A stretch of 56,428 nucleotides of DNA, taken from Verrucomicrobiia bacterium. Its GTDB lineage: Bacteria > Zixibacteria > MSB-5A5 > DSPP01. Position 1 is the stretch's first letter, and each line of letters starts with the position of its first letter. A program made the position numbers and the translations under genes. Below are positions 30,210 through 54,727 of this stretch, in pieces. The DNA lies in the NCBI GenBank assembly GCA_035574275.1, contig DATLYY010000009.1, positions 1-56,428 of the forward strand. The letters run 5' to 3'. A model generated the notes under the pieces. It did not search any database and was not told the origin of the DNA. It saw only the letters and a list, made by a program, of their open reading frames with translations.

Positions 30210-31748
<1,539 letters not shown>

Positions 31749-31755
31749 GTGTCCG

Positions 31756-39374: not shown

Positions 39375-39403
39375 TTGACAGAATTCCGCGCGGGCCGTAT
39401 CAT
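39375..39403 (+). promoter_or_regulatory. Promoter of the 42-heme cytochrome operon
   Basis: TTGACA (39375-39380), exactly 17 nt, TATCAT (39398-39403). Transcription would start near 39410. The same TTGACA-N17-TATCAT occurs at the hexaheme gene (48915). Confidence 0.85.
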
Positions 39404-39412
39404 ATATGGAGT

Positions 39413-39435
39413 CAATGGAGCAAATGACTCCATTA
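39413..39435 (+). promoter_or_regulatory. Rrf2-type operator, site 1
   Basis: CAATGGAG-N7-CTCCATTA, 9 nt after the -10 box. It sits within a larger perfect repeat, ATGGAGTCA (39406-39414) with TGACTCCAT (39425-39433). The half-sites match those at the two rrf2 genes (CAGTRGAG-N7-CTCYACTG). Its position at the transcription start suggests repression. Confidence 0.65.
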
Positions 39436-39450
39436 TAGAACGGAGGCGAG

Positions 39451-39522
39451 ATGCAGCGCCGGCAGAAAGGGTGGGGTGAAAGGCCAGGGCTCAAAGGTGG
39501 GGGGGGTGAGGTATGGCTGTAG
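39451..39522 (+). CDS. Possible 23-residue upstream ORF
   Basis: An ATG with an excellent RBS (GGAGGCGAG) opens a 23-codon frame rich in Gly, Arg and Trp. Its TAG overlaps the start of the next gene (ATG 39513). It may act by translational coupling or as a leader peptide, or the RBS may simply be coincidental. The frame includes a run of 8 G (39499-39506). Confidence 0.25.
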   Translation: MQRRQKGWGERPGLKGGGGEVWL

Positions 39523-39983
39523 GTGGAAATGGGAGAGGGGTGATAGGTTGGCACCTCCTATGCCGGGGGCTTTTCGCCGTTCTGCTGTTGCCGGTAATTG
39601 CCCATGGCGACAAGGATAAACCGAAGCTAAGCGGCATAACGATGCGCGCGTACCACCTGCTGTACCCGGATTACAGCCAGACGTTCACCGTGGGGCTGAA
39701 TCAAAAAGTCCAACTGGCGGACACCAACCTGTTCGCGGCGGTCGAGGAGTTTGTGCCGCATTTTGCCATCGACACGGTAACCCACAAGGTGTTCGCGCAG
39801 TCGCAAGAGCTAAAAAACCCGGCCTTCAAGGTGGGGATTTACATCGGCACGGAAAGAAAGGAGGAACAGTGGGCTTTCTTCAAATTTGCCGTGCCCCATT
39901 TCACCCGCCAGACCGGGCTGCGCTTCGAGGTCTTGAAATTCAATTATAACGGCAGAACCTACCGTCGGGAAAAATTGAAATGA
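39513..39983 (+). CDS. Small exported protein of the cytochrome operon
   Basis: A 156-residue protein with a long signal peptide (core LFAVLLLPVIAHG, about residues 19-32) and a mature part of about 120 residues that is beta-rich (YHLLYPDYSQTFTVGLNQKVQL, NPAFKVGIYIGTERKEEQWAFFKFAVPHF). The NPAFKVGIYIG...WAFFKF section vaguely recalls a ResB-like strand, but I do not assign a family. It is the first gene of the 42-heme operon and overlaps the cytochrome start by 4 nt (ATGA). It may help cytochrome maturation or assembly. Confidence 0.6.
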   Translation: MAVGGNGRGVIGWHLLCRGLFAVLLLPVIAHGDKDKPKLSGITMRAYHLLYPDYSQTFTVGLNQKVQLADTNLFAAVEEFVPHFAIDTVTHKVFAQSQELKNPAFKVGIYIGTERKEEQWAFFKFAVPHFTRQTGLRFEVLKFNYNGRTYRREKLK

Positions 39984-42900
39984 AACGGCTGGTGTGGAAA
40001 ATATTTGTCCTCGCTGTGGCCTTGGTCGCCGGATTTTCTGCGACTGCTTTTTCCCAAGGGAAAACCTGTTACGACTGCCATACCAAGGCCAAACAGGAAT
40101 ACAAAAAGAAGTTCGTACACGCCCCGGTGGCCAAGGGGGATTGCGAATCGTGCCACGACCGCCATGGTTTTGCGCAGCGGCTGGTTTTGAAAAAGAAGGG
40201 TGCGGAACTCTGCTACACCTGCCACGCCGATACCAAGGATAAATTCACAGCCGGTACGGCTCATCCCCCCGTTTCACAGGGGAACTGTACCTCCTGCCAC
40301 AATCCGCACGCTTCGGATGAAAAAGCCCTGATCCGAAAATCAGAGGATGGACTGGTTTGTTTCGTTTGTCATGCGGAAACGAAAAAGCAGGACACTCTGG
40401 CCGTTCAGCATGCCCCCTTTAAAAAACAGGAGTGCGCCAGCTGCCATTCAGCGCACAATTCTCCCCATCCCGGCCTTTTGACCCGGCCGGGCGGCGAGCT
40501 TTGCGCTTCCTGCCATTCCCCCGCGGATAAGAAGCTTTCCGAAATGCACGCCAAATTCGGGGCCAACAATTTCAACTGCACGGATTGCCACTCCCCGCAT
40601 GCCTCGGCGGAAAAATATCTCTTGAACGGGAAAGCCCACCCTCCGGCGGCGCAAGGGGAATGCGAAAGCTGCCATAATCTTCCGAAAAGCGGAGAAACCG
40701 TTCAACTCGTTGAACCGGTGGAACAACTTTGTTTGACCTGCCACGATACCGTCAACCATGACCTGGCATTGAAAGGCAAGCATCCCCCAGCGGCGGAAAA
40801 ACAGTGCACCACCTGTCACCAGCCCCATTTTTCCGGTCAAGACCATCTTTTGGTGGACAAACAAAAGACCTTGTGTCTGACCTGCCACGACAATTTGGAG
40901 AAACAGGGGAAGGACCCCTCCGTGCACGCCGCCTTTGTGGAGGGAAGCTGCAGCAGTTGCCACGAGCCGCACGGTTCCTCCGAAGAACATCTCGTAAAAT
41001 CTGCAGGCAATGAACTTTGCCTTGCCTGCCACAAGGAAATTGAGAACCAGACCCGTTCTGCTTTTCCGCATGCCGCAATAGAACAGGCCAATTGCCTGGG
41101 CTGCCACAAGCCACATTCCTCCAAAGAGCCGGTCTTGCTGGCCGACAAGGAAAAAGCGATCTGTCTGGGCTGTCATGCAGATATGGGTGAGCTGGATAAA
41201 AAAGAGGTTCAGCATCCGCCGTTCAGCCAGGGGGCTTGCGGTGCCTGCCATACTCCCCACGGTTCCCCGTTCGCCAAACTGGCGCGGGGAGAACAGCTAA
41301 AAATGTGCGCTTCCTGCCATCCGGCGGTGGTGAAAAAATCTCAGGAAAAGAAACTGCACGCACCGTTCAGGGAAAATAATTGCCAGGTCTGCCACAACCC
41401 GCATGCCGCGGATTCAAAAAACTTGTTGGCGGCAAACGAAAAGACCGCCTGCCTTACCTGCCACAAAGATAAGTCGTCCCAATTTGAACAGAAATTTTTG
41501 CATACGCCGGTAGCCAAAAATGAATGTTCCGGCTGCCACGAGCCGCACGGCGGCGGGTTCGACAAGCTGTTGAAAAGCAAGAGTGATGATTTGTGCTACA
41601 GCTGCCATAAGGCGGAAGAAAAGAGCTTTGCCCAGGGGACCGTGCATCAACCGGTGGCCGAAAAGCAGTGCCTGGCCTGCCACAGCCCGCATGGCGGCCC
41701 GGTCAAAAACGGCCTGACAACACCGGTGCCGGAACTTTGCGCTTCCTGCCACGATTTGAAGCAGAAAAGTTTAAAAGAGGCGCATGGCGGCTATCCTTTG
41801 GACAGCGCCAACTGCACGAGCTGCCACAACCCGCACGCCTCCCCAGAAAAGAAGCTGCTAACGGCCCAAAAGCATCCTCCCTTTGCCGAAAAAAGCTGCG
41901 ATGCCTGCCACGCCCCGCCGGATGAAAGCGGACAGGTCAAACTGACGGCGCCGGTACAGGAGCTTTGTTTGACCTGTCATTCCGGTCAAGAAGCGGATTT
42001 GAAGAAGCCGGTCGTACATTCACCCGTCAAGTCCGGCGAGTGCCAGAGCTGCCACAATCCGCACGCGTCGAGTTTTTCCAAATACTTGAACGACAAAATG
42101 CCGGATTTGTGCTTCAGCTGCCACGAAGGGGTCCGAAAAGAGGCCGCGCAGGCCGTGGTGCATCCCCCCGTGTTGGAGGGGAAATGCCTCGATTGCCATG
42201 AAAAACATTCCTCCGCTTCCCGTGGGCTTTTGGCCAAACCGGCTTTGAAATTGTGCCTCTCCTGCCATACTGATTTGGAAAAGCGGTTCAAAACGGAGAC
42301 CCTGCATGCGCCGGTGGCGCAGGGGCGCTGTTTTGCCTGCCACCAGCCGCACGGCTCGGCCAATGCCTACTTGTTGAAGGATTCCAAGGAAAAGCTTTGC
42401 CTCTCTTGTCACAAAACGGACCTTCCTGCTTTCAAGGCAAAACACTTGAATTTTCCCGTGGCCGGCTCGGATTGCTCTTCCTGCCACGATCCGCATTCGA
42501 CCCCAAAGGGGAAATTGGCGCTCCTTTATCCCGCCAATCACCAACCGTTTGCTACCAAAAACTGTCTGGCCTGCCACGCCTCGACGAATTCTCTTTCCAT
42601 TAAGAAGGAGGGTTCGGATTTGTGTTTCGGGTGCCACGGAGATAAAAAGGGGAATTTTTCGGGGAAAGTGGTGCACCGTCCAATTAAGACCGGCCAGAGC
42701 TGTCTGGCCTGCCATTCGCCGCACAATTCCTACACGGCTACGCTGTTGAATGCCAAAAAGGAGCGTTTCTGTTACCAGTGCCACGACCGAAAGATTTTTA
42801 AGAAAAAGTTCACTCATCCGCCGGTTTTGGAGGACTGCCAGACCTGCCACCAACCGCATGCGGGTGAAAACGGTTCCCTTTTAGTGGAGGCGAAGGTGAA

Positions 42901-43090
42901 CGACCTTTGCAGCCAGTGCCACGACGCCCAAAAAACCCACATGCATCCGACCGGCGAGCCGCACAAGGACCCCCGCACGGGTGGGCCGCTTACCTGCATC
43001 GGCTGCCATAACCCGCATTCCGCCGACTATGAAAAACTTTTGCGCGGTAGCCAAGACCGGGAGCTTTGCATCCTGTGCCACAAGACCTGA
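39980..43090 (+). CDS. 42-heme c-type cytochrome
   Basis: A 1036-residue exported protein. After a signal peptide (MKRLVWKIFVLAVALVAGFSATAFS) the whole chain is a tandem array of doubled-CXXCH units. I count 42 CxxCH motifs, about one per 24 residues, with no other domain. The repeat alternates HxPxxxGxCxSCHxPH and a following LCxxCH about 20 residues later. CHNPH/CHEPH and the upstream His of HAPV/HPPV are likely distal ligands. The regular spacing suggests an elongated heme chain, periplasmic or extracellular. Lys content is high. It is followed 1 nt later by an NHL-repeat protein. System I genes for heme attachment (ccmEF) lie 8 kb downstream. Confidence 0.93.
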   Translation: MKRLVWKIFVLAVALVAGFSATAFSQGKTCYDCHTKAKQEYKKKFVHAPVAKGDCESCHDRHGFAQRLVLKKKGAELCYTCHADTKDKFTAGTAHPPVSQGNCTSCHNPHASDEKALIRKSEDGLVCFVCHAETKKQDTLAVQHAPFKKQECASCHSAHNSPHPGLLTRPGGELCASCHSPADKKLSEMHAKFGANNFNCTDCHSPHASAEKYLLNGKAHPPAAQGECESCHNLPKSGETVQLVEPVEQLCLTCHDTVNHDLALKGKHPPAAEKQCTTCHQPHFSGQDHLLVDKQKTLCLTCHDNLEKQGKDPSVHAAFVEGSCSSCHEPHGSSEEHLVKSAGNELCLACHKEIENQTRSAFPHAAIEQANCLGCHKPHSSKEPVLLADKEKAICLGCHADMGELDKKEVQHPPFSQGACGACHTPHGSPFAKLARGEQLKMCASCHPAVVKKSQEKKLHAPFRENNCQVCHNPHAADSKNLLAANEKTACLTCHKDKSSQFEQKFLHTPVAKNECSGCHEPHGGGFDKLLKSKSDDLCYSCHKAEEKSFAQGTVHQPVAEKQCLACHSPHGGPVKNGLTTPVPELCASCHDLKQKSLKEAHGGYPLDSANCTSCHNPHASPEKKLLTAQKHPPFAEKSCDACHAPPDESGQVKLTAPVQELCLTCHSGQEADLKKPVVHSPVKSGECQSCHNPHASSFSKYLNDKMPDLCFSCHEGVRKEAAQAVVHPPVLEGKCLDCHEKHSSASRGLLAKPALKLCLSCHTDLEKRFKTETLHAPVAQGRCFACHQPHGSANAYLLKDSKEKLCLSCHKTDLPAFKAKHLNFPVAGSDCSSCHDPHSTPKGKLALLYPANHQPFATKNCLACHASTNSLSIKKEGSDLCFGCHGDKKGNFSGKVVHRPIKTGQSCLACHSPHNSYTATLLNAKKERFCYQCHDRKIFKKKFTHPPVLEDCQTCHQPHAGENGSLLVEAKVNDLCSQCHDAQKTHMHPTGEPHKDPRTGGPLTCIGCHNPHSADYEKLLRGSQDRELCILCHKT

Positions 43091-43091
43091 T

Positions 43092-43994
43092 ATGAGACGA
43101 ATAGCCCCCCTCCTTTTATTGCTCGCTTTTTTCAGCCCCTCGGTGGCGCAAGAGATGAGCTTGAAAAGCTCCTTTCAAATCACCGGAGCGCCGGGAAAGG
43201 GATTGGAAAGTCCCGCTTCGTTTGCCTACGATTTCAATCGGGAGCGAATCCTTGCGGCCAACACCGGCGCCAACGTTGTTGATGTTTTCACGGCGGCGGG
43301 AGAGTTTCTTTTCAGAATTGGGGAAACGGAGCTGCTTTCAGCGCCCATTGGCGTGGCGGCTCTTGCTTCCGGTCAAATTGTTATTCTGCAGGAAAAAAAC
43401 ACCATTTTGAAAATTTACAACGAAGATAGTCAGCGGCTGGATACCTTCAATCTCACGGCCGTCGATTCAACCCTCAAAGTCCGCGTCAGCCGGATTTTGG
43501 CCGACGGTAGGGACAATCTTTACTTGCTGGATGTCGGCAACAACCGGATTTTGGTTTTGGACAAAACTTGGAAAAAAACGGCGGTTGCGGGCGCAACGGG
43601 TCGCGGCAAGCCGCGGCGGCCGGTTGACTTGGCGCTGGACAACGCCGGCAGGATTTATTTGGCCGATGAATCGGACTGCCCCATACGGGTCTTTGACCCC
43701 AAGGGGAGGTTTTTGTCCTGTCTGGAAAAATATTCCCCCGGGCGGAACACCCGCTGGCGGCCGGCAGGGGTTTGTGTGGATTCCAAAAACCGTATCTGGG
43801 CCATCGATGCGGACGCATCGACGTTACGGGTCTTCGACGCCAACGGCAATCTGCTCCAAACCATCGACTCGGTGAACGAAGGGGGCCGCAAGTTTTTCTT
43901 TCCGGAAGAGATAAGCATCGACCGTTACGGACAACTCTACCTTTTGGAAAAGGGAAAAAACAGCATCGAGGTGTTTCAAATTGAAAGTTATTGA
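43092..43994 (+). CDS. NHL-repeat beta-propeller protein (first copy)
   Basis: A 300-residue exported protein: a signal peptide (MRRIAPLLLLLAFFSPSVAQ) and about six NHL-like blades, for example GKPRRPVDLALDNAGRIYLADESDCPIRVFDPKGRFL and WRPAGVCVDSKNRIWAIDADASTLRVFDANGNLL. Propellers of this type are protein-binding scaffolds often encoded next to multiheme cytochromes and barrels. The gene starts 1 nt after the 42-heme stop, and its own stop is 4 nt before the heptaheme start. No heme or metal motif is present. Confidence 0.85.
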   Translation: MRRIAPLLLLLAFFSPSVAQEMSLKSSFQITGAPGKGLESPASFAYDFNRERILAANTGANVVDVFTAAGEFLFRIGETELLSAPIGVAALASGQIVILQEKNTILKIYNEDSQRLDTFNLTAVDSTLKVRVSRILADGRDNLYLLDVGNNRILVLDKTWKKTAVAGATGRGKPRRPVDLALDNAGRIYLADESDCPIRVFDPKGRFLSCLEKYSPGRNTRWRPAGVCVDSKNRIWAIDADASTLRVFDANGNLLQTIDSVNEGGRKFFFPEEISIDRYGQLYLLEKGKNSIEVFQIESY

Positions 43995-43998
43995 GCGG

Positions 43999-45108
43999 AT
44001 GAAAAGATTTCGGCTCTACTTTTTGCTCTTTGCCGTCGCAGCCTGTTCGCTTGCCGTCCGGGCCCAGACCGACTACTACGACACCTCCCCGCACGGCAAT
44101 CCGGAAACTGGCGCCCTGCGCGATAACCGCTTTACCCGCGGCGACTGTAATCAGTGCCACGTCTCTCACAAAGACATCGCCCCGGCGGCGCTGGTGCTTT
44201 TCACCGAAAACAACAACAACCTCTGCTACCATTGCCATTCCCAGAGGCCGAATGGCTATCCGGCCCAGGAATCAGACCGGATGCCGCTTACGAGCGCCCA
44301 TCCCGGCTATTTCGAATACAACGCCAACGGAGTCAAAATACCGGGCGTGGAAAACCGCAAGCGCTGGCCGGGGCAATTGGTTTACGAGAATTCCGGCCTC
44401 TCCGCCAGCGGCCACTTCTTCTCCCCCCACCGGTCCGATTTGGACATGCCCAAAAAGGACAACAATGGCGCCGGAATGTGCCTGAATTGTCACAATCCCC
44501 ATGGCACGAAGAACACCTTTGATATGCTGGACACCACCTATCTGAACATAGAGGGGGCTTTTGTTTCCGGTCGTCCGCAAAACTATGAGCTTTGCTTCAA
44601 ATGCCATTCCGTCGACGGCCCAAGCGGAATGGATCCGGAAAACAAAAGGATTGCGGACTACTACGACAAATCGGTTAATAACGATGGCGAGTCGGGCCAT
44701 CAGTTCAAAACCGCTTTTGGATACGTTAAAGCGGGGGACAAACTTCCCTGCTACGACTGCCACAATCCGCACGGCTCGGCTGGCAACGACGGGCTCCGTC
44801 CCAATGCCTATCTGTTGAGCGACGAGCGCCCGGGCTGGTCTGGGCTCGATTCGATCAAAACCTCCGCCGCGCAGGCCCGCCGCTTCTGCTTCGGCTGCCA
44901 CCAATCTTCCGACGGGCAGGGGGGAGGGGTGGTGGAGGGTGTCACTTTGAACGCCTTGCCCAATGAGGTCCGTCAGCACGCTTTCAGCGACACCACCCAC
45001 TGCTACGACTGCCACGGGCGGGATTATTCTTCCTCCACATCCCGTAACGTTCATCACCCCGCAACGGGGGAGGCTGAGGGTCCCATAATCTATGAATTGC
45101 CCCGCTAA
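43999..45108 (+). CDS. Heptaheme c-type cytochrome
   Basis: A 369-residue exported protein with seven CxxCH motifs (CNQCH, CYHCH, CLNCH, CFKCH, CYDCH, CFGCH, CYDCH) and a signal peptide MKRFRLYFLLFAVAACSLAVRAQ. Hemes are less dense than in the 42-heme protein, separated by beta-rich or loop segments. Two carry the CHNPHG form typical of doubled-CXXCH cytochromes. I chose the ATG at 43999 over an in-frame TTG at 43981 for the signal peptide. Its end overlaps the barrel gene by 17 nt, so it may be the cytochrome that plugs or docks on that porin. Confidence 0.9.
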   Translation: MKRFRLYFLLFAVAACSLAVRAQTDYYDTSPHGNPETGALRDNRFTRGDCNQCHVSHKDIAPAALVLFTENNNNLCYHCHSQRPNGYPAQESDRMPLTSAHPGYFEYNANGVKIPGVENRKRWPGQLVYENSGLSASGHFFSPHRSDLDMPKKDNNGAGMCLNCHNPHGTKNTFDMLDTTYLNIEGAFVSGRPQNYELCFKCHSVDGPSGMDPENKRIADYYDKSVNNDGESGHQFKTAFGYVKAGDKLPCYDCHNPHGSAGNDGLRPNAYLLSDERPGWSGLDSIKTSAAQARRFCFGCHQSSDGQGGGVVEGVTLNALPNEVRQHAFSDTTHCYDCHGRDYSSSTSRNVHHPATGEAEGPIIYELPR

Positions 45109-46708
45109 GACTGTATGGTTCAGCCTGGCTTTTCTTCTCTTGGGGGTGGAGTCCGGCTGGGGCTATCCCCAGATTTTCGGCAACTACCAGTTCAACTACC
45201 AAAGGCAAAACCAGCCGCAGACGGACTTCAATCTGTACAACCAGAGTTTGTATTTCAACCTGCAGGATTTTGTGATGGTCAAAAATCGCTTTCTTTTCAG
45301 CGCCTACATCATCCGCAACGAGTACAACGCCGGAAGCAAATGGGTCGATTTCCGCCCCCGGCTTGATTTTGACTTGAGCGGTAGCTCCTACAAGCTTTTT
45401 TTCAGCTACCTGCCATACCGCCTTCCAGGATTCGGCGGCTCAAAGACCTACTACCGACAGTATCACGGTCTTGCCAACGTCCGCCCCGCCAAATGGCCCG
45501 ATTTGCGCTTCAACTGGACCCGCTCCGACGTGCACGACAACCTGCCCATACGGCTGTCCGATGCGTCGCTTAGGACCTGGTCGGTCGGGTCGGGCTGGAC
45601 CAAAAACGCCTTCAACGCCGTTATGACCTACATCCGCCAGGAAAATTCCGACCGCATGCGGGGGCTAAAGACGCAGGAGAACAACACCTTCAACGCGGGG
45701 GCGGGATTAAATCGTTCCGTTTTTGGCTCCGGCTATTTTTCTTCCAATTACAATTATTCGTTCAATCAACGGAAGGAAAGGGGCATCCGAACCGGCTCGT
45801 CCAACACCCATTCCTTGACCACCCAATACACTGCACCGGTGGGGAAAAAACTTTCCTTTGCCAGCAACTATTCGGGGCGCTTTTCCTTTGTGGAACAGCC
45901 GCTGCAAAATCCAGAGTTTCAGGATCAAACCCTCAACAATTCGCTATCCTTTGTGCCGGTTTCCCGGATGGACATTTCGTTGGTTCGGGGGGATGTCCGC
46001 TCCCTCGGGCCGGCGGCACGCACCAGCCAGGAATACTGGGCCGGTGTTTTCAATTACTCCTTCCCGGTCTGGCAGAATATCGACGGCAGAATCTCGTACT
46101 CAAAGACCTATTTCGGCGTATCAACACAGGGGCGTTATTTCTCGGACGTTTATTATCTCTCGCTGGTTGCTTTGGCCTATCGCAACCTTCAAGTGCGCGG
46201 AGACCTTACGGTTAATTTCCGTTCCGGGCCGCTTTTTGTCGAAAGCCGCTACCAGACCTCCCGCTTTCTGGACATCCGTTCCCATCCTTTGGAAAAATTG
46301 CAGTTGAACTACTACTACCAGTCCGCCATCAGTTCCCAAACCCTTGTCTTTGCCCAGGTGTCGTCGGAAAGCCACAACCTTTCCTTGGGCTACACACCCG
46401 TGCCAACCTGGAGCACCACGCTCAATTATCTGGTGCGGTATGCCCCGGGGGCCGCCGGCAAGCAGCAGCTTTTGTCCGCGCAGATTTACCACACCTTCCG
46501 GAATCAATTCAACTGGAACGTCAACTACGGCCTCACATTTCATTCCGCCCCTCTGCCGGGTCAGGTGCGGCAAAGCGATAATTTTTCCTCGCAGCTCGTC
46601 ATTTTTCTGGAACGCAAAACCGTTTTGAGCTTGAGTTACTCCGCGGTCAATTTAACCGCCGGCAGTTTTTCCTCCAATCTGGGAGCCACCCTTAACCAGC
46701 AATTTTGA
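45092..46708 (+). CDS. Outer-membrane beta-barrel protein of the cytochrome operon
   Basis: A 538-residue protein with signal peptide (ending GWG) and a mature chain of alternating amphipathic strands rich in Tyr, Asn, Ser and Phe (for example FGNYQFNYQRQNQPQTDFNLYNQSLYFNLQDF). It ends in Phe as Bam substrates do, and has about 20 potential strands. No CxxCH is present. By position and size it is a functional analogue of MtrB/PioB or porin-cytochrome barrels, though I see no sequence kinship. It would carry electrons across the outer membrane by hosting a cytochrome. It starts inside the heptaheme gene. Confidence 0.78.
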   Translation: MNCPAKTVWFSLAFLLLGVESGWGYPQIFGNYQFNYQRQNQPQTDFNLYNQSLYFNLQDFVMVKNRFLFSAYIIRNEYNAGSKWVDFRPRLDFDLSGSSYKLFFSYLPYRLPGFGGSKTYYRQYHGLANVRPAKWPDLRFNWTRSDVHDNLPIRLSDASLRTWSVGSGWTKNAFNAVMTYIRQENSDRMRGLKTQENNTFNAGAGLNRSVFGSGYFSSNYNYSFNQRKERGIRTGSSNTHSLTTQYTAPVGKKLSFASNYSGRFSFVEQPLQNPEFQDQTLNNSLSFVPVSRMDISLVRGDVRSLGPAARTSQEYWAGVFNYSFPVWQNIDGRISYSKTYFGVSTQGRYFSDVYYLSLVALAYRNLQVRGDLTVNFRSGPLFVESRYQTSRFLDIRSHPLEKLQLNYYYQSAISSQTLVFAQVSSESHNLSLGYTPVPTWSTTLNYLVRYAPGAAGKQQLLSAQIYHTFRNQFNWNVNYGLTFHSAPLPGQVRQSDNFSSQLVIFLERKTVLSLSYSAVNLTAGSFSSNLGATLNQQF

Positions 46709-46721
46709 AACGGAGACGCCG

Positions 46722-47300: not shown

Positions 47301-47301
47301 T

Positions 47302-47871: not shown

Positions 47872-47874
47872 AGT

Positions 47875-48840
47875 ATGAAAGAGCGGTTTTGGGTGCCTGG
47901 AATGAAGCGGATGTTTGTTGTCCTTATCGTGTGGTCTATAACGGGAGTTTTACGGGCCCAGGAGTCCCCTTTGGATGTGCGCCTAAGATTTCTGACCGCC
48001 GGGTACAGCTATGAACTCCCCTTTTCCAGCCCGCAGGGGGTTTTTTATGACCGTAAAAACAAAGAGATATACGTCTGCGACGCCGGCAATCATCAGGTGG
48101 TGATTTGTGATTCCAGCGGTTTTCCAATTTATCGCTTCAAGCACTGGGTGGAAAGCGGGGGGCGCCGTTTTTTGGGAGAGCCTCGCAGCATAGCGGTCAA
48201 CTCACTGGGGGATATTTATTTGGTCGATAATCTTGCGGATTATATCGAAGTGTTGGACCACCGGGGGGAACGGCAGTATCAGATTCATCTGGCTCCCCTG
48301 CTCGGTTTGCCTTCCGCCAAGCCGACCTGTCTGACGATGGATGCGGACGACGTTTTGTACGTCAGTTTCCGCAACCAGAAAAGTGAATTGGTAGCTCTGG
48401 ACGCCGATTTGAAAATTCTTCTTCGGCTGGAAAACCGGGAGGAGAACCAGCAAAATTTTGGCGAAATTTCCGGCCTGTGGGTCGACTCAAACATTTATCT
48501 GACGGATGCGGTGGCCGAACCCTGCGTCCGGGTTTTTTCCAAAGAGGGGAGCTACCTTCTCGGTTTCGGCACGCATGAAGTCGGCTGGGAGGGCTTTTCG
48601 TTGCCCTCCGGTGTCGTTGTCACGAATGGCGGGATCATTTGGATTGCAGACACTTTCCGGCAGGTGGTCAAGGCGTTTGATTCAAAGGGCACCTTCTTGC
48701 GCTACATCGGCGGATACGGCGTCCAAGCCGGTGCAATGGACTATCCGGTTGCGCTGGGCGGGGACGGGGAGTCCCTCATTTTCGTTTTGGAAAAGGCCGG
48801 AGAACGGGTTCAGGGATTTGAAATTGCGCCGGATGAGTAA
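47875..48840 (+). CDS. NHL-repeat beta-propeller protein (second copy)
   Basis: A 321-residue exported propeller with repeats such as PFSSPQGVFYDRKNKEIYVCDAGNHQVVICDSSGFPIYRF and LPSGVVVTNGGIIWIADTFRQVVKAFDSKGTFLRYIGGYG. The signal peptide core MKRMFVVLIVWSITGVLRAQ begins at residue 10, so an ATG at 47902 is an alternative start. It resembles the propeller at 43092 in organisation, and it closes the operon. No terminator hairpin is obvious between its stop and the next promoter at 48915. Confidence 0.82.
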   Translation: MKERFWVPGMKRMFVVLIVWSITGVLRAQESPLDVRLRFLTAGYSYELPFSSPQGVFYDRKNKEIYVCDAGNHQVVICDSSGFPIYRFKHWVESGGRRFLGEPRSIAVNSLGDIYLVDNLADYIEVLDHRGERQYQIHLAPLLGLPSAKPTCLTMDADDVLYVSFRNQKSELVALDADLKILLRLENREENQQNFGEISGLWVDSNIYLTDAVAEPCVRVFSKEGSYLLGFGTHEVGWEGFSLPSGVVVTNGGIIWIADTFRQVVKAFDSKGTFLRYIGGYGVQAGAMDYPVALGGDGESLIFVLEKAGERVQGFEIAPDE

Positions 48841-48914
48841 TTGACGCCCGTCAAGTCGCCCCCAACCTTTTGGGCGGCAACGGAATAAGCGGTTAAATTA
48901 AGTTCCGATTTTGC

Positions 48915-48943
48915 TTGACAAGAAGCGGTATGATATTTATCAT
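48915..48943 (+). promoter_or_regulatory. Promoter of the hexaheme cytochrome gene
   Basis: TTGACA (48915-48920), 17-nt spacer, TATCAT (48938-48943). It is identical in both boxes and spacing to the promoter of the 42-heme operon. Confidence 0.85.
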
Positions 48944-48956
48944 AGGTATGTCAAGT

Positions 48957-48979
48957 GAGTAGAGTCACTGGCTCACTTG
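48957..48979 (+). promoter_or_regulatory. Rrf2-type operator, site 2
   Basis: GAGTAGAG-N7-CTCACTTG, 13 nt after the -10 box, overlapping a perfect repeat TCAAGTGAG (48951-48959) with CTCACTTGA (48972-48980). The TRGAG-N7-CTC core is preserved. The outer right half deviates from the other sites. Confidence 0.5.
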
Positions 48980-49021
48980 AACTCTTAAATGAGGATGAAC
49001 GGCACATATAAGCGGAACGAA

Positions 49022-49044
49022 CGGGGCGTTGCCCGGTTTTTTTT
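49022..49044 (+). terminator. Attenuator-like hairpin in hexaheme leader
   Basis: GGGC (49024-49027 region), loop GTT, GCCC and GG followed by eight T (49037-49044). The stem is short, but the U-tract is strong. It lies about 95 nt into a leader of about 255 nt, before the coding start at 49205, so it may end transcription early. Confidence 0.4.
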
Positions 49045-49204
49045 CGACATTCATGTGAAACGAATCACAAGTCAAACCCAAAAAAAGGAGGCGTATCGAC
49101 AGGAGATGGACTTCCTTAAAAGTATTTCGAAGACCGCGAGGGGAGATTCAATTCATTTCGGAAATGACCCAAACCACAAATCCAACAGGGAGGTGAAACA
49201 ACTC

Positions 49205-50317
49205 ATGAAGACATTCGTACTTGTCGCCTTCTTTGTGCTGGGGATGATGGCGGCCGCCATGTCCGGGGACTACCATTACGGTACCACCCTGATCTGTTCG
49301 GACTGTCACGTCATGCACTTTTCGCAGGCGCACGGCTACAACAACGACGGCGGCGGCACTTTCGTTCCTTTGGGGAGTAACGCGGAACACTATCTCTTAA
49401 GGGATGAGGTGAACAAGCTCTGCTTGAACTGCCATGACGGCCAGGCGTTCGCTCCGGATGTGTACGGCAGCAACACCGGATCGCACAACCGGCAGGCGGG
49501 GGCTTTGAACAAGGCCACCGACGCGGGACCGTACTACCCGCAGGACGGGCACACCCTGTTTGCAACCGCAGCCCCTCCCGGGGGAACGGGCTGGACACCG
49601 GATGCCACGCATGGCTTGAACTGCATCGACTGCCATCATCAACACGGCCATCCGGGAACCGGTTTTGCGGCCTACGATTCGGCAGGAACGGGCGTTCTGG
49701 GAACCGGCACCTATCGGAATCTAAAAGCGAACCCCGGCAACGCCAGCTCCACAAGCAACCCGAACCGCTGGGTGACCTACCGGGTGGGAACCAATTCGCT
49801 GCTCTCGGACGTGTTCGAAAGGACCACAGGACCGGGGGTGGCGGCCCACTATGACGTTTCCAACGTTGACTTCAACGAGCCGAACGCCGCGGCATCGGCC
49901 TATGGCGCCTGGTGTCAGGGGTGTCACAGCGATTTCCACGGCAGCGCCGGAGACGCGTGGATGCGCGATCAGGGCTATCCAGTGGCGGGGCATGGCTGGT
50001 TCCGCCACCCGACCGCGGGCATCAACATTGGCGGCCAGCCGACCAGCGGGCATTCGTCCTTGGCATCCTTCCGGAACAACCTGTTCCGCACACAGGTGAT
50101 GAGCCCGACCGGTGTCTGGGGATCGCAGGGTGCCGCTTGGACGACCGCTCCGGCCGACCTGACGCAATCCTGCTTCTCCTGTCACAAAGCTCACGGCAAC
50201 AAAAACGCCTTCGGGCTGATTTTCGCCAAAGGAAATGCGGCTCTGGGTGAGGAAGGGGATGGCGCGGACGCCAGAAACCTCTGCCGTCAGTGCCATGTTC
50301 AAGGGGCAGACCCGTAG
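49205..50317 (+). CDS. Hexaheme c-type cytochrome
   Basis: A 370-residue exported cytochrome with six CxxCH motifs (CSDCH, CLNCH, CIDCH, CQGCH, CFSCH, CRQCH). The signal peptide is MKTFVLVAFFVLGMMAAAMSG, and the start is preceded by GGGAGGTGA. The frame stays open upstream to 48989, and an ATG at 49106 also follows a purine run, but those extensions would bury the signal peptide. Glycine, Asn and aromatic-rich loops separate heme pairs, which end in HxxHG segments typical of doubled-CXXCH proteins. It has its own promoter and operator, and a terminator downstream. Confidence 0.9.
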   Translation: MKTFVLVAFFVLGMMAAAMSGDYHYGTTLICSDCHVMHFSQAHGYNNDGGGTFVPLGSNAEHYLLRDEVNKLCLNCHDGQAFAPDVYGSNTGSHNRQAGALNKATDAGPYYPQDGHTLFATAAPPGGTGWTPDATHGLNCIDCHHQHGHPGTGFAAYDSAGTGVLGTGTYRNLKANPGNASSTSNPNRWVTYRVGTNSLLSDVFERTTGPGVAAHYDVSNVDFNEPNAAASAYGAWCQGCHSDFHGSAGDAWMRDQGYPVAGHGWFRHPTAGINIGGQPTSGHSSLASFRNNLFRTQVMSPTGVWGSQGAAWTTAPADLTQSCFSCHKAHGNKNAFGLIFAKGNAALGEEGDGADARNLCRQCHVQGADP

Positions 50318-50337
50318 AACTTGCTCTATGCAGCACC

Positions 50338-50365
50338 GAGGCGTCCGAAAGGGCGCCTCTTTTTT
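50338..50365 (+). terminator. Terminator after hexaheme gene
   Basis: GAGGCG (50338-50343) pairs with CGCCTC (50354-50359), followed by six T. Confidence 0.8.
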
Positions 50366-50425
50366 ATGCTTTAATGCAGGAGTTGGCCGGATTGCCGGAA
50401 GCGGCTGCCCGCGGAGAATAACTCG

Positions 50426-52690
50426 TTATTTCGTTACCGGCGCCCTGCTTTTAAGTGTTTCTTTTTTGACCGCTTGCTCGCCGATTCGCAGCAGCCGCGG
50501 CCGTTCCTTGGCACGACGCCAAGTGGAAAGCACACCGCCCGACAAAAGTAGGATGGAACCCAGCCATACCAGGATAATCAAGGGTTTCTTGGAGACCTCG
50601 ATGGAAACGGCGTCCGCCGTCTTGCCGGCGGCCGGGAGGGTTTCCAACGCCAGCATAACCTGCCGACTGTCGGCCTGGACGCCGATGAGTGACAGCTTGG
50701 TCTTGTCCGGCAGCTCCACGGGCGGGGAATTTACCTGTCCCGTCACCGTTTGAATGAGCTTGGGAGTCAGCTCCTGCGTCCTGCCGTTCTGTAAAATGGA
50801 CAGTTTGGCCCCGACCTGGAATTCGTTTCCTTCCGGGTTCATATGAACCCCTTCAAAACCGAGAAAAGTGATTTGGTATTCCAAAATTTTACGCGCTTCG
50901 CCGGCGGTCAGAAGCAATGTGTCGGCCGCTTGGGCCTTCTCTCCGGCGCCGGAATGGTCGATGGGCGAGATGTAAATGTCGTACAAAAGCCCTTTTTGGA
51001 TGGCCGGGTTGCGCATATATCCCTGATTATACTCCGACCAGTAAAAGCGAGGCCGGGCCTCGGAAATTTTCCCCGTATGTTCCACGCTAAAAACAAGCGC
51101 GTTTTCAGACGGTTTGGCGCCCGCTACCGTCCCCTTGTAGGTCAGCGTATAGCCGAAGGCGGATTTGGCCTCTCCGGCTGTCAAGTTCATCCGTTCCGAC
51201 TGGGAATAAACGCCGGAGAAGATGAATCCAGCCAACAACATGGCAACGCCGATGTGCGCCAGATAACCCCCCGAGTTGCCCGGCCGTTCGGCCAGGCGGC
51301 GGGAAAAGGCAAAAAAGCTGGAAAAAAGGGCGAAGAAACAAAGAAAGTAGAACAGAGGATAAAACGACTCTTTGAACCCGGCAATAAAAGTCACTACTGC
51401 AAACCCCAAGGCCAGGATGGCGGGCCAGAACGCTTTGCGCAGTTTTTCGGTCAAGGAATCGGCGCCGTACGGCAGATTGGGGGTTATCGCCAAAAGAAAA
51501 GCCAGTAGAACGCCAATCGGGAGATGGGTCTTTACGTAATACGAGACATCCACCGCCGCCGCTTTTCCAAACAGGCGGGTTATTAACGGGGAGGATGTGC
51601 CCAAAAAGACGAGCGCCGTGGAAAAGGCCATCACCAACATGAATACCAAAACGGACCAATCCGCGTTGACCAAAAATCTTCCATACGGTTCTCCCTTGAT
51701 CTCCCGCATTCGGTAAAGAAGCATTCCAAAACCAAAAAGCACAAAGGTTAGAAGGAAGAGAACCAAAAGGCCGTTTATTCCCAAGTCGGTAAAGGAATGC
51801 ACGGAGAAATCGGCCAAAATACCGGAGCGGGTGAGAAACGTGCCGTAGACGACCAACAGAAACGTTACCAGCGCCAGAAGAAAATTGGTTTTGGGGAGCG
51901 CGTTTTTATGTTTCTGAATCAAGAAGCCGTGAATAAGTGCGGTAGCGGCCAAAAACGGCATCAGCGAGGCGTTTTCCACCGGGTCCCAGCCCCAATAACC
52001 GCCCCAGCCCAATACTTTGTAGGCCCAGAAGCCGCCGACGATAATTCCGGCGCCAATGGCCAGCCAGGCAAAGTTTACCCACGGGAAGGAGACGTTCACC
52101 CAGCCGCGGTACTCCCGGCGGGTCAGGGCGGCCATCGCCAGGGCAAAAGGCACGGCCAGCGCGGCAAATCCCAAAAAAATGACCGGCGGGTGAATCACCA
52201 TCCAGAAGTCCTGCAGGAGGGGATTCAATCCCCGGCCGTCTGCGAGAACCTGTGCGGCCGGCTCGAACGGCGAGCGCTTGATTAGAATGAAAAGCAGAAA
52301 GAGTTGAACAAGCGAATAGAAAAACATTCCCCGCTCCTCGTATTCCCCCAAGCGCTTGAGCATGAACAACCCCAAAAGGGCCGACAGCCCGAGCCACAAA
52401 AGAAAAGACCCCTGCTGCCCGGCCCAGACGGAGGAAAACAGATAATGGAAGGGCAAATCGGAAGAGGAGTATTCGGCGACGTAGGTGATTTCGTAATGCT
52501 TGGCCACGAAAAGATAGAAAAGATAAACGAGCGCGCCAACGGAGAAAAGGGCGGAGACCCAATAGAAGCGGCGGCCCCAAATCAAGGTTCCCTTGGTTCG
52601 GCCCCATGCGTACAGGTAGCTGATAACGGAAAAGAAACCGAAAAGAAGGGAGATGCTTAAAAAAAGGTTGCCGGTAAGGGAGGCGTTCAT
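50426..52690 (-). CDS. ccmF: Cytochrome c heme lyase CcmF
   Basis: A 754-residue polytopic membrane protein. The WWD heme-handling motif WGGYWGWDPVENASLMPF and HPPVIFLGFAAL are diagnostic of the CcmF family, with many helices through about residue 480. A periplasmic segment of about 240 residues, beta-rich (FGYTLTYKGTVAG to the PELPDKTKLSLIG region), precedes the last helix near the C terminus. It ligates heme, delivered by CcmE, to apocytochromes. The ATG at 52690 overlaps the ccmE stop by 4 nt. No ccmABCGH genes are found in the window, so they are either elsewhere or absent. Confidence 0.95.
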   Translation of the reverse strand: MNASLTGNLFLSISLLFGFFSVISYLYAWGRTKGTLIWGRRFYWVSALFSVGALVYLFYLFVAKHYEITYVAEYSSSDLPFHYLFSSVWAGQQGSFLLWLGLSALLGLFMLKRLGEYEERGMFFYSLVQLFLLFILIKRSPFEPAAQVLADGRGLNPLLQDFWMVIHPPVIFLGFAALAVPFALAMAALTRREYRGWVNVSFPWVNFAWLAIGAGIIVGGFWAYKVLGWGGYWGWDPVENASLMPFLAATALIHGFLIQKHKNALPKTNFLLALVTFLLVVYGTFLTRSGILADFSVHSFTDLGINGLLVLFLLTFVLFGFGMLLYRMREIKGEPYGRFLVNADWSVLVFMLVMAFSTALVFLGTSSPLITRLFGKAAAVDVSYYVKTHLPIGVLLAFLLAITPNLPYGADSLTEKLRKAFWPAILALGFAVVTFIAGFKESFYPLFYFLCFFALFSSFFAFSRRLAERPGNSGGYLAHIGVAMLLAGFIFSGVYSQSERMNLTAGEAKSAFGYTLTYKGTVAGAKPSENALVFSVEHTGKISEARPRFYWSEYNQGYMRNPAIQKGLLYDIYISPIDHSGAGEKAQAADTLLLTAGEARKILEYQITFLGFEGVHMNPEGNEFQVGAKLSILQNGRTQELTPKLIQTVTGQVNSPPVELPDKTKLSLIGVQADSRQVMLALETLPAAGKTADAVSIEVSKKPLIILVWLGSILLLSGGVLSTWRRAKERPRLLRIGEQAVKKETLKSRAPVTK

Positions 52691-53076
52691 TTTTCCGCCT
52701 TGTAGGTTTGCACTTCCTCCCCCTGATACTTGGAGGGGCATTTGACCAACAATTGGTCGGCCTGGAATACTCGTTCCCTATAATTTCCGATTGCCACAAT
52801 CTGGGTGGCCTGGTCGAAGTTGCCGGGACGGACTCCCTTGTAGGAGACCTCCAGCATCTCCCCGTGGCTGTCCTTCAGCGTGAAGTACAAAAGCCCGGCG
52901 GTCGTATCATACCGGGTGGCGGATTTTTCCAGTTCCCCCATCACCTGCACGGTCTGGGGGGAGCTTTTGGCCTCGGCAAAACTGACGTAGGGGGTCAAGC
53001 TGGTTTTCAGGCTGACCGCCCCGTAAATCACGAACCCCACGATTATGACCAGGGCGACGATATAACGGATTTTCAT
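52687..53076 (-). CDS. ccmE: Heme chaperone CcmE, CxxxY variant
   Basis: A 129-residue membrane-anchored OB-fold protein: a single N-terminal helix (YIVALVIIVGFVIYGAVSL), VQVMGELEKSATRYDTTAGLLYFTLKDSHGEMLEVSYKGVRPGNF, and QLLVKCPSKYQ near the C terminus. The heme-binding residue is Cys in CPSKY (C-x3-Y), not the His of HxxxY in the common form. This variant is known from archaea and some sulfate reducers, where CcmH is missing. Good RBS AAAGGAG. It is translationally coupled to ccmF. Confidence 0.93.
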   Translation of the reverse strand: MKIRYIVALVIIVGFVIYGAVSLKTSLTPYVSFAEAKSSPQTVQVMGELEKSATRYDTTAGLLYFTLKDSHGEMLEVSYKGVRPGNFDQATQIVAIGNYRERVFQADQLLVKCPSKYQGEEVQTYKAEK

Positions 53077-53258
53077 ACGGCTCCTTTCATATATTTGGAA
53101 TTGCCGGAATGATCAAAAGAGGCCGGGGCTCCGAAAATACAGCATGGGATCCGCAGGTAGGGGAGGATCCGGTAGGGAATGGAACCCCGGCCGTGGGTGT
53201 GGCGGTTGCGGCTTTGTTCGCATTGAAGCATATGCTAGGCGATGGAACGGGCGGTCGT

Positions 53259-53717
53259 TTATGACGGTTCATTCTTCCTTCCGTTTCCGGCCCGCTCGGG
53301 AAGCACCTTGCTCAAATCCGTGGCCAAAATCCCGCCGAGACATTGATTCAGCCGTTTCTGGAGGGTCATCCGCTGACGGTGGGCCGGGCAAATCCGCTCC
53401 CCCGGGCAAAGGCGGTGCTCGTCCAACAAACAGGCCTCGTGCCCAAGCGGCCCGTCGCAGGCCTGGATGATGTCACGGGCGCTGATCTGCCCGGGTGGGC
53501 GGGAAAGAGAATACCCCCGCACGTTGCCCCGGTGGGAATTTAGGATGCCCGAGTGAGTCAAAACCTGCAGGATTTTGGAAAGAAAGGAGGCGGGGATTTC
53601 GGTCTGGCGGCTCAACTGGCCGGTGGTAAAAACCAGCCCGGCCGGCCGGCCGGCCAGATAGGCCACCGTCCTCAGCGCGTACTGGCACCCCTTGGAAAGG
53701 GGCATCAACCGGGTCAT
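53259..53717 (-). CDS. Rrf2-family regulator (copy A)
   Basis: A 152-residue winged-helix regulator: MTRLMPLSKGCQYALRTVAYLA, recognition region TTGQLSRQTEIPASFLSKILQVLTHSGILNSHRG, the Rrf2 wing RGYSLSRP, and a Cys cluster in HEACLLDEHRLCPGERICPAHR (three Cys) that probably holds an iron-sulfur cluster, as in IscR, NsrR or RsrR. I placed the start at the ATG with AGGAA upstream. It is divergent from the tetraheme gene and about 51% identical by eye to copy B. Its own promoter has the palindromic operator, so it is likely autoregulated. Confidence 0.9.
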   Translation of the reverse strand: MTRLMPLSKGCQYALRTVAYLAGRPAGLVFTTGQLSRQTEIPASFLSKILQVLTHSGILNSHRGNVRGYSLSRPPGQISARDIIQACDGPLGHEACLLDEHRLCPGERICPAHRQRMTLQKRLNQCLGGILATDLSKVLPERAGNGRKNEPS

Positions 53718-53731
53718 TCGTTCCTCATATA

Positions 53732-53754
53732 CAGTAGAGCCGCTCGCTCCACTG
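53732..53754 (-). promoter_or_regulatory. Rrf2-type operator, site 3 (rrf2 copy A)
   Basis: CAGTAGAG-N7-CTCCACTG on the plus strand, which is CAGTGGAG-N7-CTCTACTG on the minus strand. It sits between the -10 box and the RBS of regulator copy A. Confidence 0.75.
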
Positions 53755-53760
53755 ACTCCA

Positions 53761-53789
53761 AGATAAGCGCGGGCCGCCCGGCCTGTCAA
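53761..53789 (-). promoter_or_regulatory. Promoter of rrf2 copy A
   Basis: Minus strand: TTGACA (53784-53789), 17 nt, TTATCT (53761-53766). An 18-nt spacing to TATCTT is equally possible. The operator begins a few nt downstream. Confidence 0.7.
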
Positions 53790-53858
53790 GCACTTTTTTT
53801 GGCCCCCCGCCCCGGCGGCGAACGCGGCCGGCAAGGCGGGATGGGGACAAGAAAATGC

Positions 53859-53887
53859 TTGACAGGCGGCTCTTCACCCCCTACTTT
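53859..53887 (+). promoter_or_regulatory. Promoter of tetraheme cytochrome gene
   Basis: TTGACA (53859-53864), 17-nt spacer, TACTTT (53882-53887). Transcription would start near 53894, inside or just before the operator. Confidence 0.75.
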
Positions 53888-53897
53888 GCGGTGGGCA

Positions 53898-53920
53898 CAG
53901 TGGAGTCGACTGCTCTACTG
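53898..53920 (+). promoter_or_regulatory. Rrf2-type operator, site 4 (tetraheme gene)
   Basis: CAGTGGAG-N7-CTCTACTG, ten nt after the -10 box. Apart from the 7-nt centre, this is the same sequence as site 3 read on its own strand. Confidence 0.8.
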
Positions 53921-53995
53921 ATTGACGAGGAGGGTGGCCGGAAGCAGCCTGTGAAAAGGGAACGGAAAAGACGGAACGCGAAACAAGGAGGAGCC

Positions 53996-54544
53996 ATGTT
54001 TAAAAAACTGACGGTCGGAATGTTGTTTTTGGGGGCGGCCGCCCTGGTGTTTGCCGGGCCGGCCGGAGCCGGGTTTAAGTATGTCGGGGCCGACAAGTGC
54101 AAAACCTGCCACAACACGCAGGCGATGGGGAAAATGTACGATAAATGGATGCAATCCGCCCACGCCAAGGCGTATGCCACCCTGGCATCAGACACCGCAA
54201 AGGCGGTGGCCAAAAAAATGGGCATTGACGACCCGCAGAAAAGCGAAAAATGCCTGAAGTGCCATACCACGGATTACGAAGCGCACAAAGCCCAGGCCCC
54301 GGACATGGCCTGGGTGGCGGAGGGGATCGGCTGCGAGCAGTGCCATGGCCCGGGCGAAAAGTACAAAGCCTTGAGCGTGATGAAAGACAAAAAGCTCTCG
54401 ATGCAAAACGGGCTTATTGTCCCGGACGAGAAAACCTGTTTGAAATGCCACGGCAACCCGGAAAATCCGTTCAACAAACCGTTCGTTTTTGCCGAGGCCT
54501 ACAAAAAAATCGAACACCGGAAGCCGAAAACCGGGACAAAGTAA
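53996..54544 (+). CDS. Tetraheme c554-like cytochrome
   Basis: A 182-residue exported protein. A signal peptide (MFKKLTVGMLFLGAAALVFAGPAGA) is followed by FKYVGADKCKTCHNTQAMGKMYDKWMQSAHAKAY, the typical start of cytochrome c554-family proteins. It has four CxxCH motifs (CKTCH, CLKCH, CEQCH, CLKCH), and AEGIGCEQCHGPGEKYK is the family core. It is probably a small periplasmic electron shuttle between the bc complex and the conduit, or part of a nitrogen or iron pathway. Strong RBS AAGGAGG. It lies between the two rrf2 genes. Confidence 0.9.
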   Translation: MFKKLTVGMLFLGAAALVFAGPAGAGFKYVGADKCKTCHNTQAMGKMYDKWMQSAHAKAYATLASDTAKAVAKKMGIDDPQKSEKCLKCHTTDYEAHKAQAPDMAWVAEGIGCEQCHGPGEKYKALSVMKDKKLSMQNGLIVPDEKTCLKCHGNPENPFNKPFVFAEAYKKIEHRKPKTGTK

Positions 54545-54566
54545 TTCCAGTTGCGGGCTTGACGCG

Positions 54567-54607
54567 GAGCGGTCGGATCGCCTTGCAGGGCGGCGGCCGC
54601 TCATTTT
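54567..54607 (+). terminator. Hairpin after tetraheme gene
   Basis: GAGCGG (54567-54572) opens a long imperfect stem closed by CCGCTC (54597-54602), with inner CGCC/GGCG pairs and a TTGCA loop, then ATTTTC. A plausible terminator separating it from rrf2 copy B. Confidence 0.55.
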
Positions 54608-54641
54608 CTGGCCGGTTTCCCGCCCGGCGGCCGAAAACCGC

Positions 54642-54670
54642 TTGACGGACACCAAGGGCCGCCCTACATT
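54642..54670 (+). promoter_or_regulatory. Promoter of rrf2 copy B
   Basis: TTGACG (54642-54647), 17-nt spacer, TACATT (54665-54670). Confidence 0.65.
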
Positions 54671-54681
54671 ATGGGCGGAGT

Positions 54682-54704
54682 CGGTGGAGAAAATGGGTCT
54701 ATTA
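54682..54704 (+). promoter_or_regulatory. Rrf2-type operator, site 5 (rrf2 copy B)
   Basis: CGGTGGAG-N7-GTCTATTA, eleven nt after the -10. The left half agrees with the other sites at seven of eight positions. The right half is degenerate (compare CTCTACTG and CTCCATTA). The alignment extends into AATTAAACG against GATTGACGA at site 4. Confidence 0.5.
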
Positions 54705-54727
54705 ATTAAACGGGAAAGGATGAACTG

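What the first reader, a model, noticed from the sequence alone, without database searches (positions are those of the whole stretch)
39375..54704. A shared palindrome behind five promoters: an Rrf2 regulon for multiheme cytochromes
Five TTGACN-N17-TAnnnT-type promoters carry a related inverted repeat 5-13 nt after the -10 box: CAATGGAG-N7-CTCCATTA (39413), GAGTAGAG-N7-CTCACTTG (48957), CAGTGGAG-N7-CTCTACTG (minus strand at 53732-53754 and plus strand at 53898), and CGGTGGAG-N7-GTCTATTA (54682). They precede the 42-heme operon, the hexaheme gene, the tetraheme gene and both Rrf2 regulator genes. The two regulators have near-identical recognition helices and three-Cys clusters. The simplest reading is autoregulation plus coordinated repression of an electron-transfer conduit by iron-sulfur Rrf2 proteins. 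The sites are seen; binding is inferred.
Basis: partly seen in the sequence, partly recalled or inferred. Interest (0 to 1): 0.85.

Follow-up and report, generated by a model that had tools for sequence, protein, structure and literature searches.

The report
Rrf2 regulon for electron-transfer cytochromes
Four sister Rrf2-type regulator genes in an uncultured Zixibacteria bacterium each carry, just behind their promoter, the same kind of palindromic DNA switch that also sits in front of the cell's large multiheme-cytochrome and electron-conduit gene clusters, so these genes are very probably switched together by repressors that sense through an iron-sulfur cluster.

Summary
A matrix built only from sites in front of two paralogous Rrf2 genes elsewhere (this genome and its nearest sequenced relative) ranks exactly these five first among 56,404 window positions. 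The hexaheme site (48956) ranks seventh, not significant alone.

The genome carries four paralogues (R1, R2 in the window; R3, R4 on contig C20). Each has its own operator variant; R3's and R4's are conserved in the relative, which lacks R1, R2, the window's tetraheme and porin genes, and the window-type motif. Other sites precede a DmsE/MtrB-type conduit operon, a second oxidoreductase operon, a sugar-dehydrogenase operon and five secreted-protein operons, so the regulon is wider than cytochromes.

Repression is inferred from site position, an Fe-S cluster from an invariant CX6-7CX5CX2H motif. The signal is unknown. R1 and R2 recognition helices are not near-identical (8/12). The founding Rrf2 represses the hmc electron-transport operon, so this is a new member of a known kind.

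The parts
30125..30153 (+). promoter TTGACG-N17-TATCTT of the 2-oxoacid oxidoreductase operon
30219..37143 (+). genes behind that operator, incl. 2-oxoacid:acceptor oxidoreductase alpha subunit (34229-36133, TIGR03710 over its cut-off)
   Evidence: the other gene identities are by eye
39375..39403 (+). promoter TTGACA-N17-TATCAT of the 42-heme operon
39412..39436 (+). operator TCAATGGAG-caaatga-CTCCATTAT
39980..43090 (+). 42-heme cytochrome (42 CXXCH)
43981..46708 (+). 7-heme cytochrome and a putative outer-membrane barrel of the same cluster (barrel by eye; no Pfam hit)
48915..48943 (+). promoter TTGACA-N17-TATCAT of the hexaheme gene
48956..48980 (+). tentative operator TGAGTAGAG-tcactgg-CTCACTTGA (weak)
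   Evidence: rank 7, E=0.84; rank 7
49001..50317 (+). hexaheme cytochrome gene (6 CXXCH)
53760..53789 (-). promoter TTGACA-N18-TATCTT of R1
53731..53755 (-). operator TCAGTGGAG-cgagcgg-CTCTACTGT of R1
53259..53717 (-). Rrf2 regulator R1 (CX7CX5CX2H)
50426..53076 (-). ccmE (52687-53076) and ccmF (50426-52741), downstream of R1 on the same strand; possible R1 operon, co-transcription not shown
53859..53887 (+). promoter TTGACA-N17-TACTTT of the tetraheme gene
53897..53921 (+). operator ACAGTGGAG-tcgactg-CTCTACTGA
53996..54544 (+). tetraheme cytochrome c554-like gene (4 CXXCH)
54642..54670 (+). promoter TTGACG-N17-TACATT of R2
54681..54705 (+). operator TCGGTGGAG-aaaatgg-GTCTATTAA of R2
54728..55189 (+). 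Rrf2 regulator R2 (CX7CX5CX2H)

Best explanation
The palindromes are operators of a lineage-specific group of four paralogous Rrf2-family repressors (R1 and R2 in the window; R3 and R4 on contig C20). A dimer contacts two 9-bp half-sites (TCARTGGAK) separated by an uncontacted 7-bp spacer, on DNA that begins 4-13 bp behind the -10 box and so covers the transcription start. It thereby blocks its own promoter and those of electron-transfer operons: the 42-heme operon, the tetraheme gene, possibly the hexaheme gene, a DmsE/MtrB-type conduit operon and two 2-oxoacid:acceptor oxidoreductase operons, and also several secreted-protein operons and one sugar-nucleotide operon. Shown from sequence: the sites, their position, their genome-wide non-randomness, their link to the regulator genes, and the conserved CX6-7CX5CX2H motif. 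Inferred: that the R proteins bind them, that binding represses, and that an Fe-S cluster held by three Cys and one His gates binding. My guess for the switch (about 1 in 3) is RsrR-like: the oxidised cluster form binds, and reduction or loss of the cluster releases the genes.
For: A matrix from R3/R4 self-sites only ranks five window sites first of 56,404 positions. Nine of nine places in the genome with at most one mismatch to the family pattern lie behind TTGAC promoters. Each of R1-R4 has a variant operator at the same promoter position; R3 and R4 operators are conserved in G001, R3 with 18 of 18 arm bases kept and 2 of 7 spacer bases kept. G001 lacks R1 and R2, the exact window motif, the porin of the 42-heme operon and the tetraheme protein. 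R3 lies directly upstream of the DmsE/MtrB cluster in G001, while the same cluster here is separate but has its own R3-type operator. Distant homologues in Ignavibacteria carry a different palindrome about 28 nt before their own start. The N7 spacer matches the central 7 bp without base-specific contacts in Rrf2-DNA structures (PMC9338935). C96, C104, C110 and H113 are invariant in 38 homologues. Best sequence and fold match is the [2Fe-2S] regulator RsrR.
Against: No binding or expression data. Only two genomes of the genus are held, and R1/R2 exist in one. The hexaheme site is not significant alone. Many targets are not redox genes. R1 and R2 sites cannot be told apart, so which regulator binds which site is open. 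Repression is read from position only. Most outside sites were found with patterns derived from the window, so only the test is independent. Mismatches in the palindromes lean towards G-U-compatible ones (17 against 7, p=0.06), which leaves a role as RNA possible.
Confidence: 0.78

Rival explanations
1. The palindrome works as RNA: a 7-9 bp hairpin with a 7-nt loop at the extreme 5' end of each transcript that stabilises the mRNA or binds a regulator.
For: The element always lies at the expected start of the transcript. Among non-Watson-Crick pairs, G-U-compatible ones outnumber A-C ones 17 to 7 (p=0.06).
Against: The arms follow the Rrf2 paralogue across two genomes, and the motif is missing where R1/R2 are missing. 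Several sites carry A-C, G-G or T-T mismatches that break a stem. Rrf2-DNA complexes have the same 7-bp uncontacted centre.
Confidence: 0.08
2. The palindromes are operators, but of a different transcription factor that controls the Rrf2 genes and the cytochrome operons in a hierarchy.
For: Binding by R1-R4 is untested; a factor from elsewhere in the genome could share the sites.
Against: Each paralogue has its own conserved variant rather than one common site. Distant Rrf2 homologues show the same habit with a different motif.
Confidence: 0.08
3. Activation rather than repression, or mixed control: the R proteins raise transcription from some of these promoters.
For: Other Rrf2 regulators such as IscR are known to act both ways (own knowledge).
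Against: All sites lie downstream of the -10 box over the start region, a position typical of repressors; the promoters are near-consensus in the -35 box.
Confidence: 0.07
4. Chance resemblance of inverted repeats behind promoters.
For: Possible for the hexaheme site 48956 only (E=0.84).
Against: The other sites exceed chance by about two orders of magnitude or more.
Confidence: 0.01

Closest known systems
Rrf2 of Desulfovibrio vulgaris Hildenborough and the hmc operon
   Same: An Rrf2 protein described as repressor of an electron-transport operon (PMC1274295); the founding case of the family
   Different: Its sequence and operator were not compared here; here there are four paralogues and a defined 9-7-9 operator at many operons
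RsrR of Streptomyces venezuelae
   Same: Best hit by sequence profile (E 7.5e-16) and by fold; [2Fe-2S] redox switch (PMC9338935)
   Different: About 25% identity; cluster type, redox response and operator sequence of R1-R4 unknown or different
IscR of E. coli
   Same: Ligand pattern with three Cys and CX2H (Cys92, Cys98, Cys104, His107; PMC5411485); dimeric operators
   Different: Fails the IscR equivalog cut-off (46.8-51.1 against 207.55 bits); spacing CX7C, not CX5C; no isc genes seen beside R1-R4
NsrR
   Same: Three Cys; 23-bp operators with an uncontacted centre. R4 heads a copper-nitrite-reductase-like gene, and hemerythrin genes lie near R3 and R4
   Different: Fails the NsrR cut-off (19.9-29.4 against 182 bits); Gln, not Asp, before the helix-1 Tyr/Asn; different operator

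Membership tests
Rrf2 superfamily (PF02082 / TIGR00738) | Profile score over the curated cut-off | tested here: met
   PF02082: R1 81.9 and R2 98.3 bits against 30; TIGR00738: R1-R4 85.7-95.8 against 73.3
Rrf2 superfamily (PF02082 / TIGR00738) | Winged helix-turn-helix fold of Rrf2 structures | tested here: met
   AlphaFold model of R2, pLDDT 83.7; first 38 PDB matches are Rrf2 proteins
Fe-S cluster Rrf2 regulators | Three cluster Cys plus a fourth ligand | tested here: met
   C96, C104, C110 and H113 invariant in 38 homologues; by sequence only
Fe-S cluster Rrf2 regulators | A bound cluster that controls DNA binding | not testable with these tools
   Needs purified protein
IscR | NCBIfam equivalog cut-off | tested here: not met
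   TIGR02010 46.8-51.1 against 207.55 bits
NsrR | NCBIfam equivalog cut-off | tested here: not met
   NF008240 19.9-29.4 against 182 bits
RirA / CymR / SUF regulator | NCBIfam equivalog cut-offs | tested here: not met
   All far below their cut-offs
Rrf2 of D. vulgaris (hmc repressor) | Orthology and adjacency to an hmc operon | not tested
   The D. vulgaris sequence was not fetched; only the kind of target is alike
Rrf2-type operator | Dyad of half-sites around a centre without base-specific contacts, near the regulated promoter | tested here: met
   9-7-9 dyad, arms about 1.07 bits and spacer about 0.42 bits per position, 4-13 nt behind the -10 box

The most novel reading that the evidence does not exclude
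Four diverged Fe-S Rrf2 sensors form a small network whose half-site variants (GGAG, GGAT, AGAGGAG) partition or overlap the control of outer-membrane electron conduits, their electron-feeding oxidoreductases and cytochrome maturation, so that the redox or Fe-S state of the cytoplasm directly sets the expression of extracellular electron transfer.
Probability: 0.35. Interest if true: 0.7.

Novelty: new member of a known kind. Interest (0 to 1): 0.5.

Why it matters
How bacteria decide when to build multiheme conduits is poorly known outside a few models such as Geobacter and Shewanella. This gives a precise, testable set of operators and regulators in an uncultured phylum, ties it to the founding role of Rrf2 in electron-transport control, and names further conduit and oxidoreductase operons as members of one regulon. 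The paralogue/operator pairs are also a natural series for working out how Rrf2 proteins recognise bases.

Tried and rejected
Pattern RRTRGAG-N7-CTCYAYY at 2 mismatches is swamped by chance (186 against 393 for the control). The same pattern at 0 mismatches in 57 relatives shows no enrichment over its control, consistent with R1/R2 being confined to this genome. The RNA-hairpin reading was tested by mismatch type and left unsupported but not excluded (p=0.06). Leaders of three secreted-protein loci were aligned: those at C6 and C26 are alike and carry a second promoter, the C75 one does not align well. No paper was found that links Rrf2 with MtrB or decaheme cytochromes, and the few that mention both Rrf2 and multiheme cytochromes or extracellular electron transfer do not describe such a regulon in the passages looked at. 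G001:C13:9242 was rejected as a site because it has no clear palindrome.
Full report
WHAT IS THERE. The five inverted repeats are present where stated. Written as 25-mers in the direction of transcription they are: 39412 TCAATGGAG-caaatga-CTCCATTAT; 48956 TGAGTAGAG-tcactgg-CTCACTTGA; 53731(-) TCAGTGGAG-cgagcgg-CTCTACTGT; 53897 ACAGTGGAG-tcgactg-CTCTACTGA; 54681 TCGGTGGAG-aaaatgg-GTCTATTAA. Each begins 4-12 nt after the -10 box of a TTGAC[A/G]-N17/18-TAnnnT promoter. A sixth site, 30167 TCAGTGGAG-ggactgt-ATCCTCTGG, lies 13 nt behind TTGACG-N17-TATCTT ahead of genes that include a 2-oxoacid:acceptor oxidoreductase.

IS IT MORE THAN CHANCE. The genome encodes five Rrf2 proteins. Four form one subfamily: R1 (53259-53717, -), R2 (54728-55189, +), R3 (C20:14985) and R4 (C20:36795). 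Looking in front of R3 and R4, without using the window motif, shows TCAATGGAT-tattata-ATCCATTGA and TCAGAGGAG-tgggcaa-CTCCTCCGA at the same place behind the promoter. The only other genome of the genus in the search set (G001; its contig matches Zixiibacteriota isolate PMV_8.32) has R3 and R4 with TCAATGGAT-aaagtga-ATCCATTGA and TCAGAGGAG-tgggaaa-CTCTTCTGA. A matrix made from these four sites alone ranks 30167, 53897, 53731, 39412 and 54681 as the five best of 56,404 window positions (scores 14.1-21.5; reversed-window best 11.8). The hexaheme site is seventh (12.6). With a matrix from all outside sites, E-values for the window are 0.001-0.02, and 0.84 for the hexaheme site. That second matrix is not fully independent, because most outside sites were found with patterns derived from the window. 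The promoter+site pattern is found 5 times in the window against 0.07 expected.

GENOME-WIDE. The family pattern with up to one mismatch occurs at nine places in the genome, all behind TTGAC promoters. The promoter+site pattern gives 21 hits against 6 for its reversed control in this genome, and 6 against 6 in G001. By inspection 14 of the 21 look real. With C6:13139 and the hexaheme site that makes 16 in this genome: R1, R2, R3, R4; the 42-heme operon, the tetraheme gene and (weak) the hexaheme gene; C20:22763 ahead of a DmsE-family decaheme cytochrome (TIGR03508, 257.7 against 192.2 bits) and an MtrB/PioB porin (TIGR03509, 312.3 against 240.05); C9:30167 and C77:49935 ahead of two 2-oxoacid oxidoreductase operons; C17:30101 ahead of genes that look like UDP-glucose dehydrogenase and glycosyltransferases (by eye); and five secreted-protein loci (C6, C26, C31, two in C75). 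The motif is thus frequent in front of electron-transfer genes but not confined to them.

LINK TO THE REGULATORS. Three lines tie the sites to the Rrf2 proteins. First, the operator variant follows the paralogue across two genomes: R3 keeps 18 of 18 arm bases but only 2 of 7 spacer bases, and R4 keeps AGAGGAG. Second, G001 has no R1 or R2, no exact window-type motif, no homologue of the porin of the 42-heme operon and none of the tetraheme protein; G001 is 93% complete, so absence is likely but not certain. Third, R3 sits directly upstream of the DmsE/MtrB cluster in G001, while in this genome that cluster is separate and has its own R3-type operator: the link survived the rearrangement. Independent support comes from Ignavibacteria, where distant homologues carry TAATCAGAY-N6-RTCTGATTA about 28 nt before their own start, and the same motif precedes genes that look like RIC/ScdA di-iron repair proteins (the latter identification is by eye).

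HOW IT PROBABLY WORKS. In the structures of Rrf2 regulators with DNA the central 7 bp receive no base-specific contacts (PMC9338935). The N7 spacer with conserved flanks fits this: the half-site averages about 1.07 bits per position, the spacer about 0.42. The operator covers the start region, so bound protein should block RNA polymerase; repression is therefore inferred. Cys96, Cys104, Cys110 and His113 (R2 numbering) are invariant in 38 homologues. This resembles the ligand set of IscR (Cys92, Cys98, Cys104, His107; PMC5411485), so a [2Fe-2S] cluster is the likeliest cofactor. The best sequence and fold match is RsrR, in which one-electron reduction of the [2Fe-2S] cluster leads to release from DNA (PMC9338935). 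If R1-R4 act like that, a reduced cytoplasm would induce electron-export genes. This last step is a guess. NO or Fe-S status are alternatives, suggested by hemerythrin genes near R3 and R4 and a copper-nitrite-reductase-like gene behind R4 that falls below its family cut-off (174.6 against 296.3 bits).

R1 and R2 share only 8 of 12 recognition-helix residues, while R2 and R3 share 11 of 12. The hexaheme site is weak, and its best palindrome has another spacing. The best-matching site of the window (30167) was missed. There are four regulators, and the regulon is wider than cytochromes. R1 is followed on its strand by ccmE and ccmF, which would bring cytochrome maturation under the same control if they are one transcript (not shown).

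COMPARISON. Rrf2 was first described in D. vulgaris as the repressor of the hmc electron-transport operon (PMC1274295; PMC9338935), so Rrf2 control of such operons is the founding precedent. R1-R4 pass the superfamily model but none of the IscR, NsrR, RirA, CymR or SUF-regulator models. They are a new subgroup with a newly described operator, hence a new member of a known kind. A scan of genome representatives of 84,980 species found one locus above 41% identity to R1, the one in G001, so the subgroup appears confined to this genus in the held data.

Noticed in passing
L005 (C26:37224) and L006 (C6:13139), downstream of the operators: Both operators are followed by a similar leader with a terminator-like stretch, then a second promoter (GGTTGACAATCCC...GTTGTGCCTCATCTTA) directly before unrelated secreted-protein genes; the first promoter could make a short RNA of its own.
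   Followed up: partly
L158, L173, L214 and over 20 further Ignavibacteria-type loci among L149-L226: Distant Rrf2 homologues have their own palindrome TAATCAGAY-N6-RTCTGATTA about 28 nt before their start; the same motif precedes RIC/ScdA-like genes, which looks like an Rrf2 regulon of its own.
   Followed up: partly
L025 (C20:36760-39600) and G001:C13:75832-78300: R4 heads a conserved operon with a copper-nitrite-reductase-like multicopper oxidase (below the family cut-off) and, in this genome, a hemerythrin gene, which hints at NO or nitrite.
   Followed up: partly
window 50426-53076 (-): ccmE and ccmF lie directly downstream of R1 on the same strand with no site of their own, so cytochrome c maturation may be in the R1 transcript.
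   Followed up: partly
window 48950-48979: In front of the hexaheme gene a perfect 9-bp palindrome with a longer spacer (TCAAGTGAG-N12-CTCACTTGA) overlaps the weak Rrf2-type site and may belong to another regulator.
   Followed up: no
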